NCBI GenBank assembly: GCA_024421095.1
Contig: JAHQYM010000015.1
Coordinates: forward strand, 1-37,894
Origin: Acidimicrobiia bacterium
GTDB taxonomy: Bacteria > Actinomycetota > Acidimicrobiia > Acidimicrobiales > Aldehydirespiratoraceae
Direction of reading: 5' to 3'
Length of the DNA: 37,894 bases
Positions 1-37,894 of the stretch are shown here, in pieces. Under the pieces are notes generated by a model that did no database searches, had not been told where the DNA came from, and was given only the letters and a program-made list of their open reading frames with translations. How positions within the stretch are numbered: position 1 is the first letter of the stretch; the number at the start of each line of letters is the position of its first letter. The translations under genes and the position numbers were made by a program.

Positions 1-415
1 ATCACGGGCACCGCGACTACACGGCGAACACTCACCCGACGGCAGCGACGGTACTGGGGCCATCACGGGCACCGTAAAAACGCGGCTAACACTCACCCGA
101 CGGTGGCGGCGCTACCGGGGCCATCACGGGCACCGCTACAACACGGCGAATACGCACCCGACGGTGGCGGTGGTACTGGGGCGATCACGGGCGCCGCGAC
201 TACACGGCGAACACTCACCCGACGGTGGCGGTGGTACTGGGGCGATCACGGGCGCCGCGACTACACGGCGAACACTCACCCGACGGTGGCGGCGCTACCG
301 GGGCGATCACTAGCACCGAAAAAACACGGCGAATACGCCCCCGACGGCAGCGACGGTACTGGGACCAGCATTAGAACCGCTACAACACGGCAAATTCGCA
401 CCCCTAGCAGGCGAA
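1..415. repeat. 61-bp tandem repeat array (about 6 full units plus one degenerate unit), truncated at the left window edge
   Basis: Unit starts 'atcacgggcaccg...' at 1, 62, 123, 184, 245, 306, and a decayed unit at about 367; constant 61-bp spacing. Confidence 0.95.
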
Positions 416-490
416 ATCGCTGCTTGAATAACCCAAGCCCAAATCTCATGTTTACGCGCCGGCTCTTATTTGCTGTACGATTACTTGGGA

Positions 491-1165
491 ATGACCGTGC
501 TAAACGCTTTTGTTCTCGGGGTTGACCTTGACGGTGTTTGTGCAGAGCACACCCTCGGTTTTCGGCGTATCGTTGCACGACGACTCAACGTTCCCGAAGA
601 ATCTTTGACCTTAGAGCGAACTTGGAACTTCAAAGAATGGGGATTTGAGCTAGAAGACTTTGAAGACCATCACCGCTATGCGGTCACCCAAGGTCGCATG
701 TTTCGGGACCTAGACGTGATCGAAGGGGCAGCCGAAGCCTTATGGCGGTTATCGGATGCTGGTGTTTGGATTCGCATCATCACCCACCGCCTTTACGTCA
801 ACTGGGGACACCAAATCGCAGCTAGCGACACCGTCGAATGGCTTGATAGGGTGCGTATTCCCTACCGTGACCTGTGTTTCTTAGGCAGCAAACCCGAAGT
901 TGAAGCCGATCTCTATATTGATGATGCCCCGCACAACATCGAAGCCTTACGTGAAGCTGGCAATGAGGTGATCGTTTTCGACCAGTACCACAACCGACAC
1001 GTTGAAGGCCTGCGGGCCACCAACTGGCAACAAGCCGAAGAAATCGTTATGCAAAGATTTGCCGAGCACTGCGGCCACCAAGGCGTGCAAACCCAATTTC
1101 GCGGTGTCTCTGGAGTGTTAGGCCAACGTCTCCCCAACCCCGAAAACAAAACTAACCACGACTAG
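491..1165 (+). CDS. 5'(3')-deoxyribonucleotidase-like HAD-family protein (NT5C-type)
   Basis: ATG at 491 (ORF extends to TTG 470); GVDLDGVCAEH HAD motif I, TH..V region, and LYIDDAPHN late-motif Asp pair. Confidence 0.75.
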   Translation: MTVLNAFVLGVDLDGVCAEHTLGFRRIVARRLNVPEESLTLERTWNFKEWGFELEDFEDHHRYAVTQGRMFRDLDVIEGAAEALWRLSDAGVWIRIITHRLYVNWGHQIAASDTVEWLDRVRIPYRDLCFLGSKPEVEADLYIDDAPHNIEALREAGNEVIVFDQYHNRHVEGLRATNWQQAEEIVMQRFAEHCGHQGVQTQFRGVSGVLGQRLPNPENKTNHD

Positions 1166-1180
1166 GCCGAAAACTCACGC
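1164..1180. repeat. Left copy of a 17-bp direct repeat flanking the RM module
   Basis: AGGCCGAAAACTCACGC, identical to 3353-3369. Confidence 0.9.
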
Positions 1181-1201
1181 CACACCCTGCCCTTTCGTTT
1201 T

Positions 1202-1942
1202 CTAGCCCTCCAGTAGGTCACTCACGTCGGATCGCTCATCCATGAACTTGACCAAACCACTGACCGTGTCGGCAACCGTGCTAAACGGAAGAAGTAGCAT
1301 CTCGTGCCGGTCAGTCTTCACGAGCACTTCCACACTCGACACCCTACTCCGAAGACTTGCACGGTCGGTGCTCAGAACCTCAACAACGGACTGGGTCAAC
1401 GTTGGCATTACCGACTCGGTTAGATCGTAGGCAAGGTTAGACCGATCTGATCCGCTGAGGATATTGAATGCGGCGAGTGACCTCAAAGGCGTTGACCGAT
1501 CCTTCTCCTCCCAGTCGAATTTTATGTGGTATTTTCTTAGCGTATCCACCATCCCTTGGAACCCGGTCGTGATGACCTCAACACCGAAACTCTTGATCAG
1601 GTCCAATGAATTATTTGACCAGTTGCCTGCTAATACTGCGGTGGACTTACGGATTGTTGGATAGGTCTTTCGCAAGTTGTAGTGCGCCACACAGAGCCAA
1701 CTTGCCTTGTCTCGATTGTGCTTTTTGTACCGTATGTACTTCGGGTCGAGGATCATCACAGGCTGGTCTTGCGCGTTCGATATCACTGCGTCAATCTGGT
1801 AGACGTTGTCGGTACCGTTCTTCATGCGCTGTGGCCCAATCTTGTGGCCGTACGATTGTACGACTGGTTCAAGGCGATCCAAAATTGATGCCTCAAACAA
1901 CTTGCCGATCTCTTGCCCTAATGCTGCAGCTGGATTGGACAT
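1202..1942 (-). CDS. Putative type II restriction endonuclease (PD-(D/E)XK-like)
   Basis: Start MSNPAAALGQEIG at 1942 overlaps the methylase stop (TAATG); motif QIDAVISNAQDQPVMILDPKYIR resembles D-Xn-(D/E)XK; adjacent to a DNA methyltransferase. Confidence 0.7.
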   Translation of the reverse strand: MSNPAAALGQEIGKLFEASILDRLEPVVQSYGHKIGPQRMKNGTDNVYQIDAVISNAQDQPVMILDPKYIRYKKHNRDKASWLCVAHYNLRKTYPTIRKSTAVLAGNWSNNSLDLIKSFGVEVITTGFQGMVDTLRKYHIKFDWEEKDRSTPLRSLAAFNILSGSDRSNLAYDLTESVMPTLTQSVVEVLSTDRASLRSRVSSVEVLVKTDRHEMLLLPFSTVADTVSGLVKFMDERSDVSDLLEG

Positions 1943-3210
1943 TAGCGGGTCACGGTGACAATGCTCTCGCGCAGAGGAACTTTGTGGCGTTGTGCGTTGC
2001 TTGGCCATTTGTTTCCTCTGTTGCGGATTACTTCAACACTGAAGGAAGTGAAACCAGCTCCCAATGCTAACTTGCCGATAAATTCGTCAGTCGGTACGTG
2101 GACACCATACGGCGCGGAGTCGCCCAACACGAGGATGAATGGGCAACCCGGTTTTAGGACCGAGTGAGCTTGCGTTATCACTCGTGCCATGTCCTCAAAA
2201 TATCCTGCCGTCATGAGGTCATACGATTTTTTTCCTGATTTCTGTTTGCGGAGAATCCCAAGCCTTGATACGGCATCGCTTAGCTCGGCATGGACTAGTG
2301 GGTCAATCGACCTGACTAACGACATTTCGATCGTTCGCGCCATCTTGTTCCGATGAACCTGCGTGGTCGCTGCCATCATCAGTTTGTTGCGGACATTGGC
2401 CGTAATATCAGCCCAACTGTCGTACAGTCCCCAAAAGTAAGTCTCGAGCCGAGTGCGGTCGGCGTAGTCGTAATTGTTGAGGTACGGTGGCGAGGTTAGG
2501 ATCATATCCACCTTCCTTTCATTTACATAAGAAGCGAGTTTTCGAGCATCTCCGTTAATCACGCTGTGAAATGACTCTATCTCAATGAAATTTTCGACAT
2601 CCTCAACCATAATTGCACAACGTTTTGTGAACTCATCAAATGCGTCTCGCCTCACTTTACGTTCAGCGAACTTGCTTGGTGCAATATATGGCCATCCCGC
2701 TCCCGCCGAGGTAGTATCGCGCAACGCAGCCGTCAACGCTAATTTGAAAAATGCTTGCCGCTCAGACCCCAATTCCAGGATGGCGGTCCTCAATGCATAG
2801 AGTGCGTCTAAGTTTTCTTGGTCGAAACACTTCTCCACCAACTCAGGCCATCCCGCCGATCTATAGCCCATTTCGGTGCGGATATCGGATGCGTGCTCAA
2901 GAAGCAACTTGGCTTCTTTCCCCAAAAGGTCGGTGTCATGGTTCAAGTCGAGTTTGGTGCGGGCTACCCAATGAACGAAGGGATGTGCCTCAACGCCGAT
3001 CGAATCGATGCCCAACTTCTTGGCTGCTAAAGATGTGGTTCCAGTCCCCAAGAAGGGATCGGCAATCAAACTACGTGTACTTAAGCCAAACTCGGCTGCC
3101 TTCGCCTCAACCAAACGATATGAGTAGCCGGCTGGATATGTGAACCAGCGGTGAACTGGAGCACTCAAACTGTCTTTGAATGTACCGTATTTTGCTACAG
3201 CGTTTGCCAT
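1942..3210 (-). CDS. DNA methyltransferase (N4-cytosine/N6-adenine type), modification subunit of the RM pair
   Basis: SAM-binding motif DPFLGTGTTSLAAKKLG and catalytic motif LTSPPYLNNYDYADRTRLE. Confidence 0.9.
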   Translation of the reverse strand: MANAVAKYGTFKDSLSAPVHRWFTYPAGYSYRLVEAKAAEFGLSTRSLIADPFLGTGTTSLAAKKLGIDSIGVEAHPFVHWVARTKLDLNHDTDLLGKEAKLLLEHASDIRTEMGYRSAGWPELVEKCFDQENLDALYALRTAILELGSERQAFFKLALTAALRDTTSAGAGWPYIAPSKFAERKVRRDAFDEFTKRCAIMVEDVENFIEIESFHSVINGDARKLASYVNERKVDMILTSPPYLNNYDYADRTRLETYFWGLYDSWADITANVRNKLMMAATTQVHRNKMARTIEMSLVRSIDPLVHAELSDAVSRLGILRKQKSGKKSYDLMTAGYFEDMARVITQAHSVLKPGCPFILVLGDSAPYGVHVPTDEFIGKLALGAGFTSFSVEVIRNRGNKWPSNAQRHKVPLRESIVTVTR

Positions 3211-3352
3211 GGTGCCAACCCGTTAGGTTTATTGGGGCTTACTCGTGAGCAGTTCGTACGCGGTTGAAATCTTTTCATGGCAACATCGTAACCGAAGTGT
3301 GTGACACTGTAGGTGATCCACTAGGCCGGCACTTTGAGAAAAATCGAAGCGG

Positions 3353-3369
3353 AGGCCGAAAACTCACGC
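3353..3369. repeat. Right copy of a 17-bp direct repeat flanking the RM module
   Basis: AGGCCGAAAACTCACGC, identical to 1164-1180. Confidence 0.9.
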
Positions 3370-3397: not shown

Positions 3398-4189
3398 TCA
3401 ACAATGATTGGTGCTTTCGTCTAGGGCTTGACGAAACTCTGCTACTAGCTCAGCCACACCATCAGGGCCGGCACCATCAAGCATTCGCTGTACCATCGCC
3501 GAACCCACCACCACACCATCCGCCTCCTCGCACACCTCCACAGCCTGTCGCGGTGTGCCCACCCCAACGCCCACCAGCACTGGAAGATCGGTCACGGCTT
3601 TGAGGCGTTTGGCGATCACTTTGGCACTCGCGGCGAGTTGTTCACGAACGCCGGTAATGCCTAGTAAACCAACTGCATAAACAAATCCACGAGAGCGCTG
3701 CGCGATGCGCGCCAAACGTTCATCAGAGGCGGTGGGTGCCCCTAAAAGTACTGTTTCGATAGCTTCCGCGTCAGCGGCTGTAGCCCAAGGCCCAAGTTCT
3801 TCAAGTGGAATATCTGGTAAAATAGCGCCGGCCACCGTGCTGCGAGCCAAAGATGCCGCGAAGCGCTGATAACCCATACGGTAGGCGATATTGCCATACG
3901 TCATCACCACCGTTGGCACACCAATATCGGCTCGGTGCAGCCGATCGAACACCTGTTGCGGGGTTACGCCAGCCGCCAACGCCCGGTCGTTAGCAAGTTG
4001 AATTGTGGGGCCGTCCATCACCGGATCAGAAAAAGGTATGCCGATCTCAACAGCATCAGCACCGGCGATAGCGGCAGCCTGCACCGTTTCGAGCCAGTCA
4101 TTCCCGAGTCCGCCGGTGAGATAAGGAACAAGACATTTGCCACCACGGTCGAGGCGCGCCCGAAGAGCCGCTTCGAGGACACCGGTCAC
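3398..4189 (-). CDS. trpA: Tryptophan synthase alpha chain
   Basis: LVPYLTGGLGN, GADAVEIGIPFSDPVMDGPTIQ; stop/start overlap with trpB. Confidence 0.95.
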   Translation of the reverse strand: MTGVLEAALRARLDRGGKCLVPYLTGGLGNDWLETVQAAAIAGADAVEIGIPFSDPVMDGPTIQLANDRALAAGVTPQQVFDRLHRADIGVPTVVMTYGNIAYRMGYQRFAASLARSTVAGAILPDIPLEELGPWATAADAEAIETVLLGAPTASDERLARIAQRSRGFVYAVGLLGITGVREQLAASAKVIAKRLKAVTDLPVLVGVGVGTPRQAVEVCEEADGVVVGSAMVQRMLDGAGPDGVAELVAEFRQALDESTNHC

Positions 4190-35303: not shown

Positions 35304-37894
35304 TCACAGTTTGAGGGCCCTTGTTAGGAAGCTGGCCATGTGGGCTCTGGTTACGGGCTGGTTGGGGCAGTATTGTAGTGGGTTTGTGTTGCAGCCTGTG
35401 GTTATGCCGGCGGTGGCGAGGGCGTTGATGTTGTTTGCGTGGGTGTTGTTGGGGTCTACGTCTGTGAAGCCGGCAGGGTCGGCTGCTGGGAGTTTGAAGG
35501 CTCTCGTTAGGAAGCTGGCCATTTGGGCTCGGGTGACGGGCTGGTTGGGGCAGTAGCGGAGCGGGTTTGTGTTGCAGCCTGTGGTTATGCCGGCGGTGGC
35601 GAGGGCGTTGATGTCTGCGGCGTGGCTGTTTGTGTCGTCAACGTCTGTGAAACCTGCTTCTTCGTCGGTGTTTAGGTTGAGGGCTCGTGTTAGGAAACTG
35701 GCCATTTGGGCTCTGGTGACTGGGTTGTTGGGGCAGTAGCGTAGTGGGTTGGTGCCGCAGCCTGTAGTGATGTTGGCGGCGTAGATGGCGGCGATTGCGG
35801 CGGCGTGGGTGTTGTCGGGGTCGACATCGCTGAACCCGGCGGGTTGTTCTGTACCGCCACCGTCGTCTTCTTCTGTGTCGGGGGCTGGGTCTGTGTCGCT
35901 GTCACCTGGGTCTGGGTCGGGGTCTGGGGTGGTGGGGGTGACGGGGTCGGGGTTGACGGGGGTGCCGCCGGGGTCGGGGTTGGTGGGGGTTATGGTGTTG
36001 GGGTCTCTTCTTTCTAGGAGGGTGATGGTGGCGTTTCGGAGTTGGGTGTTGGGGGTGTAGTGTCGGCTGAGGTCGGTGTTGCTGTTGGTGGCTGTGATTT
36101 GCAGCATGATGGTTTCCCGGGCGGTTTCGGTGGTGTCGGTGAGTATCACTTCCACCGGTTCTGAAAGCGATCCAGGATCGAACGTGACGGTTTTGTTGGG
36201 GATACGAAAATCTCCGGGGTTCTGGGCATCGACGTATTCGTCGGCGGTGCCGCCCACTACCGCTATGGTCACATCGAACGCGGTTTTGGCGGGTTTGGTG
36301 ACCGCCACCACCGGAAAGACACGACTGCCGCGTGGGGCGTTCCGAGCGTACGGCGCGCCGCGGGTGACCGGGTTCGAGAAGAACAGTTCCGCGCCGGTGG
36401 CGTCATCGTCTGTGATCGTCACGGTAGCGGTGTTCTGCCCGCTCACCGGGGTCCAGCTCGCCGTTTGAGCCGAAGCGTGAGCGGTGACGGTCACAGTGAA
36501 CGTCTCATCCTCTTCGACTATGTTGTCTGCCGTGGTGCGTACCGTCAAAGCTTTCGTGGTCTCACCCTCAGCGAGTTCCACCCCCTGCGGCGGCGCGTTG
36601 AGATCAGCCGAATCCGACCCACCGCCCGCATAGCCGTACGCGACCGAGAAATATATTCCCACACTAGGCGCGGGCTGCCCCAACGCGATCTGCAACACAG
36701 CATCATCACCTTCAGCCACCGCAGCGGGAGCGGTGATCTGATAGGTGGTGGAAATCGCAGCCACCGTCACCGCCACCGAACCCACCGACACGTTGTTGTA
36801 ATCCGTGTCGCTGCTCGTCACCGCATGGCTCACCGTAGCAGTGCCCTCAGCCACACCAGTAACAGTCAAAGGCTGGGCCGTGTCCCAGTTGCCTGTGGTG
36901 AACGTCACCGCACCCGACACCGTCGCATTCGCGGTTGGGCTGGCAGTCGGGGTGACCGTCACCTGCGCGGTGACCGTCACCTGCGCGGTGGGTTGCGTGT
37001 TCAACCGCAAAGTATACGTTGACGCCACATTCTCGAACACCGACAACGTCTGGGTGCTGACCGTCACCCCTGCCACGTCATCATCGGTGATCGTCACAGT
37101 CACGCCTGTGACCGCCCAACCCGACACGGTCGCCGACAACACGATCGTCTCGTTGCCCTCAGCGGCCACATCATCAGTGATCGACACGTTGGCAGTCGCC
37201 GATGTTTCCCCCTCGGCAACCGTGAACGCACCCGGCAACACAAAGTCCGCACCAGCAGTCGCAGTGCCGGTGGCGGTCAACGTCACCGACACCCCGCCCG
37301 ACGGGGCACGCCGGTTCAACGTCGCGGTCACCGCCACCATGCCCCCGCCCTCACTAACGCTGCTGTTGGCGGCGCTCAACGTCAACCCCGCCGGCGGACG
37401 CGTCAACATGTAAGTCACGGTGGTAATGGCATCCTCAGCGGTCACCACGACACTCGCCGGCAACGACGCGACCGGGATCGCCGTGCTCGCCGCGCCGCTC
37501 GCCACCGTCTGTGCAGACCCACCAGAGGGCGTAACGCTCACCGTCGCAGCAGCATGGTTGACCGTCGGCGTGACCATCACATGCGTCACCTCAGCGCCGA
37601 TCTGCAACTCATATGACGTGGTGGCTGACGCGAACGTCGGTGTCAACGGCACCGCCGCGTTGAACGCCGAACCATCGCTGCTCGACGTCACCGACAACGC
37701 GCTCAACGACGCATCGACCGACACCTCGCTATGCCCCAAATACTGAGCCAACCCGACCTCGGTGCGGTCAGTTGTCGCCAAATCGTAATCAGGGAACGCA
37801 CGCGACACCTCGCCAGCCACCACGATCTTGGGGGTAGTCTCGCCGGTTATAACATCGGTGTCGCTCCGCAAAGCAACTGCGTAGGCGTTGTCCA
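35304..37894 (-). CDS. Large cell-surface protein with cadherin-like/Calx-beta domains, Pro/Asp/Thr-rich linker and three C-terminal SLH-like repeats; N-terminus beyond the window
   Basis: ORF remains open past 37871 to the window end; Calx-beta text (AGADFVLPGAFTVAEGETSATANVSITDDVAAEGNETIVL); three copies of FTDVD.NNTHA..I.A....ITTGC.TNPL.YCPN.PVTRA.MASFLTRAL.L. Confidence 0.88.
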   Translation of the reverse strand, partial: DNAYAVALRSDTDVITGETTPKIVVAGEVSRAFPDYDLATTDRTEVGLAQYLGHSEVSVDASLSALSVTSSSDGSAFNAAVPLTPTFASATTSYELQIGAEVTHVMVTPTVNHAAATVSVTPSGGSAQTVASGAASTAIPVASLPASVVVTAEDAITTVTYMLTRPPAGLTLSAANSSVSEGGGMVAVTATLNRRAPSGGVSVTLTATGTATAGADFVLPGAFTVAEGETSATANVSITDDVAAEGNETIVLSATVSGWAVTGVTVTITDDDVAGVTVSTQTLSVFENVASTYTLRLNTQPTAQVTVTAQVTVTPTASPTANATVSGAVTFTTGNWDTAQPLTVTGVAEGTATVSHAVTSSDTDYNNVSVGSVAVTVAAISTTYQITAPAAVAEGDDAVLQIALGQPAPSVGIYFSVAYGYAGGGSDSADLNAPPQGVELAEGETTKALTVRTTADNIVEEDETFTVTVTAHASAQTASWTPVSGQNTATVTITDDDATGAELFFSNPVTRGAPYARNAPRGSRVFPVVAVTKPAKTAFDVTIAVVGGTADEYVDAQNPGDFRIPNKTVTFDPGSLSEPVEVILTDTTETARETIMLQITATNSNTDLSRHYTPNTQLRNATITLLERRDPNTITPTNPDPGGTPVNPDPVTPTTPDPDPDPGDSDTDPAPDTEEDDGGGTEQPAGFSDVDPDNTHAAAIAAIYAANITTGCGTNPLRYCPNNPVTRAQMASFLTRALNLNTDEEAGFTDVDDTNSHAADINALATAGITTGCNTNPLRYCPNQPVTRAQMASFLTRAFKLPAADPAGFTDVDPNNTHANNINALATAGITTGCNTNPLQYCPNQPVTRAHMASFLTRALKL

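What the first reader, a model, noticed from the sequence alone, without database searches (positions are those of the whole stretch)
1164..3369. Type II RM module bracketed by a perfect 17-bp direct repeat
Seen directly: AGGCCGAAAACTCACGC at 1164-1180 (overlapping the stop of the deoxyribonucleotidase-like gene) and again at 3353-3369 (just before the trpA stop). The RM genes lie between, with no transposase or integrase. Collapsing the two copies would leave a compact convergent junction of about 43 bp between the nucleotidase gene and trpA. Inference: the cassette was inserted with duplication of a target site, or can be gained and lost by recombination between the repeats.
Basis: partly seen in the sequence, partly recalled or inferred. 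Interest (0 to 1): 0.72.

Follow-up and report, generated by a model that had tools for sequence, protein, structure and literature searches.

The report
Restriction cassette between 17-bp repeats
A two-gene DNA-defence cassette sits in a gap between two housekeeping genes, flanked by the same 17 letters on both sides; relatives lack it there and a few distant ones carry it elsewhere, so it looks like one more self-contained defence cassette that hopped in and probably copied a bit of the landing site.

Summary
In detail: AGGCCGAAAACTCACGC occurs at 1164-1180 and 3353-3369 and nowhere else in the 2.72-Mb draft genome, even with 2 mismatches. It is not chance. Between the copies lie only a methyltransferase and a PD-(D/E)XK-type nuclease gene, coupled by a TAATG overlap.

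Insertion is well supported. All five congeners lack the module at the nucleotidase-trpA junction: two have a compact junction, three an oxidoreductase gene. Close homologues of the cassette (REase 70-72% identity) occur in three other Acidimicrobiia MAGs, each at a different locus and without a mobility gene. One of those loci is a 2-188-bp gap in 19 RM-free relatives. Those cassettes lack flanking repeats, so the 17-mer is not part of the cassette and more likely comes from the target.

Target duplication itself is not proven. The nearest RM-free relatives carry neither copy, but they are only about 80-88% identical in protein and their intergenic DNA no longer aligns. Excision by recombination between the repeats is untested.

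This matches RM 'insertion with long target duplication', described in Helicobacter. New member of a known kind; modest interest.

The parts
470..1165 (+). 5'(3')-deoxyribonucleotidase-like gene (NT5C), left host neighbour
   Evidence: PF06941 E=5.5e-38; conserved next to trpA in the genus
1164..1180 (+). left copy of the 17-bp direct repeat, overlapping the last 2 bases of the NT5C stop codon
1181..1201 (.). 21-bp spacer between left repeat and REase stop codon
1202..1942 (-). Type II restriction endonuclease-like gene, 246 aa, D51-x14-D66-x-K68 (PD-(D/E)XK) motif
   Evidence: weak PADLOC REase_II hits; motif conserved as D...(D/E)xK in 4 homologues; relative next to an MTase on an Erwinia plasmid; predicted alpha-beta-beta-beta-alpha-beta core
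1942..3210 (-). amino-methyltransferase gene (N6A/N4C type), 422 aa, motifs DPFLGTGTT and TSPPY; stop overlaps the REase start (TAATG)
   Evidence: PF01555 E=1.9e-12; PADLOC MTase_II E=1.4e-72; alignment
3211..3352 (.). 142-bp region upstream of the MTase, probably its promoter and the right end of the inserted DNA; not conserved in homologous cassettes
   Evidence: weak promoter-like match at 3218-3189; no DNA similarity upstream of the MTase in homologues
3353..3369 (+). right copy of the 17-bp direct repeat
3398..4189 (-). trpA, right host neighbour, followed by trpB and trpF
   Evidence: PF00290 E=6.3e-66; synteny in relatives

Best explanation
A two-gene Type II restriction-modification operon without mobility genes was inserted, as a unit of about 2.17 kb, into a compact convergent junction between the NT5C gene and trpA in the lineage of this Acidimicrobiia genome. 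The two 17-mers are best read as a duplication of host target sequence made at insertion (one copy either side of the incoming DNA), with the left copy still carrying the end of the NT5C stop codon. Shown: the exact repeat, its uniqueness, absence of the module from the same junction in five congeners, homologous naked cassettes at other loci in other genomes, absence of the repeat from those cassettes. Inferred: that the ancestor had one copy, that the duplication arose during insertion, and that the genes are an active RM system.
For: Perfect 17-bp pair unique in the genome and at both edges of the module. Five of five congeners have convergent NT5C/trpA without the RM; two have compact junctions like the 43-bp collapsed one. 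Cassette homologues (REase 70-72%, MTase 71-72%) in three other Acidimicrobiia MAGs all lie at different loci, DNA similarity stops at the cassette edges, and none has a repeat of 12 bp or more at its borders. The nadE site is a 2-188-bp gap in 19 RM-free relatives. RM G+C is 50.7% against 55.5% for the contig. Precedent: RM insertion with long and variable target duplication (PMC3031569, PMC1643837).
Against: No close RM-free relative shows a single 17-mer; the congeners have neither copy. The sister cassettes show no target duplication, so duplication is not a regular feature of this cassette's movement, although old duplications could have decayed. No Ku homologue was found in the genome, so a Ku-dependent end-joining fill-in route is not supported. 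In a related genus a comparable junction shows local tandem duplications without any RM, so a duplication could have preceded the insertion.
Confidence: 0.6

Rival explanations
1. The 17-bp sequence was already duplicated at the host junction (slippage), and the RM DNA later integrated between or next to the two copies, perhaps by short-homology recombination. The repeat then marks the site rather than the insertion mechanism.
For: Local tandem duplications at a tight gene junction are common in the related genus g44 without RM: 40-, 62- and 64-bp duplications of the nadE 3' end. Sister cassettes have no flanking repeats.
Against: No tandem 17-mer is seen in any relative of this genus; it needs two events instead of one.
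Confidence: 0.2
2. The 17-mer is a functional 3' element (terminator or trailer) that both minus-strand genes, REase and trpA, need downstream; in RNA sense it reads GCGTGAGTTTTCGGCCT 21 to 28 bases after each stop codon.
For: Both copies have the same orientation and similar distance downstream of a minus-strand gene; the scan finds a terminator-like stem just before the right copy.
Against: Only two copies in the genome, so it is not a general element; folding is no better than shuffles for either copy (z -1.18 and 0.07); fewer terminator-like sites than in shuffles.
Confidence: 0.08
3. The repeat is part of the mobile cassette itself (terminal direct repeats recognised by a trans-acting recombinase).
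For: It lies at both ends of the module.
Against: Absent from the four homologous loci, whose borders share no repeat longer than 11 bp.
Confidence: 0.05
4. Chance repeat or assembly artefact.
For: The genome is a fragmented draft (231 contigs), and the contig starts in a minisatellite 391 bp from its end.
Against: Null models give at most 11 shared bases; NT5C-trpA synteny on either side matches five relatives, and both genes of the module are intact.
Confidence: 0.04

Closest known systems
RM gene insertion with long target duplication (Nobusato et al. 2000, H. pylori 26695 versus J99; cited and described in PMC3031569 and PMC1643837)
   Same: RM genes without their own mobility genes, bracketed by direct repeats that look like duplicated target, at a locus empty in relatives.
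   Different: The single-copy state of the target has not been seen here; 17 bp is short for that class (length comparison from own knowledge; the original paper was not readable).
Autonomously transferred complete RM systems in small integration regions (Oliveira et al. 2014, PMC4176335)
   Same: A complete system in a small region between core genes, not on an identifiable mobile element, present in few members of a clade.
   Different: That study is a survey of location and size; it does not rest on flanking repeats.
Type II MTase-REase pair on Erwinia aphidicola plasmid p3_N2_6 (NZ_CP142283)
   Same: Same gene order, MTase 35-36% identical, REase-like partner 24% identical over 224 aa.
   Different: On a mobilizable plasmid, distant in sequence.
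Homologous cassettes in VYCQ01000023, JAPOTT010000011 and VXMP01000003 (Acidimicrobiia and an unnamed bacterium MAG of the same order)
   Same: REase 70-72% and MTase 71-72% identical, same TAATG-type coupling.
   Different: Other loci; no flanking repeat.

Membership tests
Type II restriction-modification system (separate MTase and REase) | DNA amino-methyltransferase with SAM-binding and catalytic motifs | tested here: met
   PF01555, PADLOC MTase_II 1.4e-72, DPFLGTGTT and TSPPY motifs
Type II restriction-modification system (separate MTase and REase) | Partner nuclease with a recognised catalytic motif and fold | tested here: met
   D-x14-(D/E)-x-K conserved in five homologues; PADLOC REase_II 1.8e-5, homologues up to 1.2e-56; predicted core as in PD-(D/E)XK nucleases, pLDDT 82. 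No Pfam match, and Foldseek matches are weak.
Type II restriction-modification system (separate MTase and REase) | Cleavage of a specific site and protection by the partner methylase | not testable with these tools
   needs expression or a methylome
RM insertion with long target duplication | RM module bracketed by direct repeats | tested here: met
RM insertion with long target duplication | The site is empty in related genomes | tested here: met
   five of five congeners lack the RM at the junction
RM insertion with long target duplication | The repeat is single-copy in the empty allele | tested here: inconclusive
   relatives have neither copy, but their junction DNA is not alignable
Composite or IS-linked transposon carrying an RM system | IS element or transposase at one or both ends | tested here: not met
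   only two genes between the repeats; the 17-mer has no other copy in the genome
Integrase-dependent island or integron cassette | Integrase gene with att or attC sites | tested here: not met
   no integrase between the repeats; no tRNA scan or attC search was made, so only the gene criterion was tested

The most novel reading that the evidence does not exclude
This RM family moves between genomes as a bare two-gene unit by its own means, repeatedly taking over gene-junction slots, sometimes where a dispensable gene (oxidoreductase here, DUF179/AlgH in the 1.8-Mb relative) has been lost, and occasionally duplicating the target.
Probability: 0.12. Interest if true: 0.6.

Novelty: new member of a known kind. 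Interest (0 to 1): 0.3.

Why it matters
How complete RM systems move without mobile-element genes is an acknowledged open question (PMC4176335 discussion). This is a clean small example in a phylum where it has not been looked at much (own impression), with one locus with repeats and several without, so it can be used to test whether target duplication is part of the process. By itself it does not settle the mechanism.

Tried and rejected
The 17-mer as a dispersed repeat: rejected, two copies only. The 17-mer as a piece of the 61-bp minisatellite at 1-391, which shares CGAA(C/A)ACTCAC: the array lies only at this contig end, and the likeness is about 11 bases, so set aside. A third partial copy at 3320 (ACTAGGCCG, 9 bases): within chance. 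The 17-mer as terminator: no folding signal. Ku-dependent end joining as the source of the duplication: no Ku found in this 98%-complete genome. Viral contigs: no relative of the MTase. Plasmids: no REase relative at E 0.01; MTase relatives below 40% identity. Phages: three distant MTase relatives only. Foldseek against the PDB gave only weak, low-TM matches, among them EcoO109I, Ecl18kI and other PD-(D/E)XK nucleases, used only as agreement with the motif. The primary papers on long target duplication (Nobusato 2000, Furuta 2010) are not in the library.

Full report
Observation. The sequence AGGCCGAAAACTCACGC is at 1164-1180 and 3353-3369 on the plus strand, both perfect. A search of the whole draft genome (2,717,722 bases, 231 contigs; the window is the whole of contig 48) with up to two mismatches finds only these two. 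Randomly placed window pairs of the same size and spacing share at most 11 bases unless they contain this pair. Within the window no other exact direct repeat of 15 bases or more has a spacing of 300-5000 bp outside the minisatellite at the contig start. In about 110 kb of control contigs the only pairs of 17 bases or longer belong to tandem arrays or to a conserved helicase motif. The repeat is real and not chance.

Anatomy. Left of the module is a deoxyribonucleotidase-like gene (NT5C, PF06941) whose stop codon overlaps the left repeat by two bases; right of it are trpA, trpB and trpF on the minus strand. Between the repeats there are two minus-strand genes. The first is an amino-methyltransferase (1942-3210; PF01555; PADLOC MTase_II 1.4e-72). 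The second is a nuclease-like gene that most likely starts at 1942, so that its ATG overlaps the methyltransferase stop (TAATG). It carries D-x14-D-x-K, conserved as D...(D/E)xK in four homologues, and a predicted alpha-beta-beta-beta-alpha-beta core. Its match to described restriction enzymes is weak by itself (PADLOC 1.8e-5) but clear through its relatives. That it is an active Type II restriction enzyme is inferred. The left edge is tight (21 bp from repeat to REase stop); the right edge holds 142 bp upstream of the methyltransferase.

Is it an insertion? In all five available genomes of the same genus NT5C and trpA are convergent neighbours, and none has the module there or a close MTase or REase homologue anywhere. 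In two of them the genes are separated by a short gap (about 20 and 90 bp from the stops, read); in three an FAD-dependent oxidoreductase gene lies between, as in a neighbouring genus. The oxidoreductase has no close homologue in this genome or in the two compact ones, and the genus tree implies at least three separate losses (some nodes are weakly supported). So the slot was emptied more than once, and here it holds the RM module. Whether the RM replaced the gene or entered after its loss is not known; a simple target duplication implies the latter.

Does the cassette move? A scan of one genome for each of 84,980 species gave three close relatives, all MAGs (two labelled Acidimicrobiia, one labelled only bacterium but the same sequence as a genome of this order), plus one distant one in Latescibacterota. 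The search used two short peptide patterns, so it is not exhaustive. Of 397 genomes of the order, only two others have the REase, and they are the only two in their genus of 22. Each close relative has the same two genes at another locus: between a TPR gene and a class-V aminotransferase, between nadE and a small conserved gene, and between two AMP-ligase genes. DNA similarity is confined to the cassette. At the nadE site 19 RM-free relatives have a gap of 2-188 bp, so that one is a clean insertion. At the TPR-aminotransferase site the RM-free relatives examined have about 580 bp that read as a DUF179/AlgH gene; the RM genome has no DUF179 match anywhere.

Where does the 17-mer come from? The borders of the homologous cassettes share no direct repeat of 12 bases or more, so the 17-mer does not travel with the cassette. 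That leaves the target. Duplication during insertion is the simplest reading. A pre-existing local duplication is a real rival, because tandem duplications of 40-64 bp at the end of nadE occur in several RM-free relatives of the other genus. The direct test, one copy in an RM-free relative, could not be made: the congeners have neither copy with up to two mismatches at the junction, but they are 80-88% identical in the flanking proteins, and their junction DNA does not align. No Ku homologue was found, so end joining by Ku is not a supported route.

Comparison with what is known. RM genes inserted with long and variable target duplications, and RM systems that act as mobile units, have been reported mainly in Helicobacter (PMC3031569, PMC1643837). 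A survey of 2261 genomes found that complete RM systems usually lie in small integration regions and seldom on mobile elements, and called their mobility unexplained (PMC4176335). The case here fits both. It is a new member of a known kind. The repeat makes it a good specimen, but the decisive empty allele is missing.

Verdict. Observation confirmed. Insertion of a bare RM cassette: likely. Target duplication as the origin of the repeat: more likely than not. Loss through recombination between the repeats: untested.

Noticed in passing
window 1-391: A 61-bp minisatellite (6.4 copies, 83% matches) at the contig end, upstream of NT5C; it matches nowhere else in the draft genome.
   Followed up: partly
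G001, G002, G003, G004, G005 NT5C-trpA junction (L027-L031): An FAD-dependent oxidoreductase gene between NT5C and trpA is present in three congeners and gone from two congeners and this genome, apparently lost several times.
   Followed up: partly
L079-L086, L090 nadE 3' end: Tandem duplications of 40 to 64 bp containing the nadE stop region at a tight gene junction; three copies in L083.
   Followed up: no
G070 (L049 5722-7736): The RM cassette stands where RM-free relatives have a DUF179/AlgH gene, and this 1.8-Mb genome has no DUF179 match at all.
   Followed up: partly
G000, G070, G119: The RM-bearing genomes are the smallest or nearly the smallest of their genera, and this window is poorer in G+C than its congeners (54.8 against 62-65% for the stretches compared).
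   Followed up: no
window 35304-37892: Open-ended large surface-type protein with Calx-beta-like repeats and three SLH-like repeats (183-bp DNA period) at the other contig end; domain names are from reading the sequence, not from a search.
   Followed up: no
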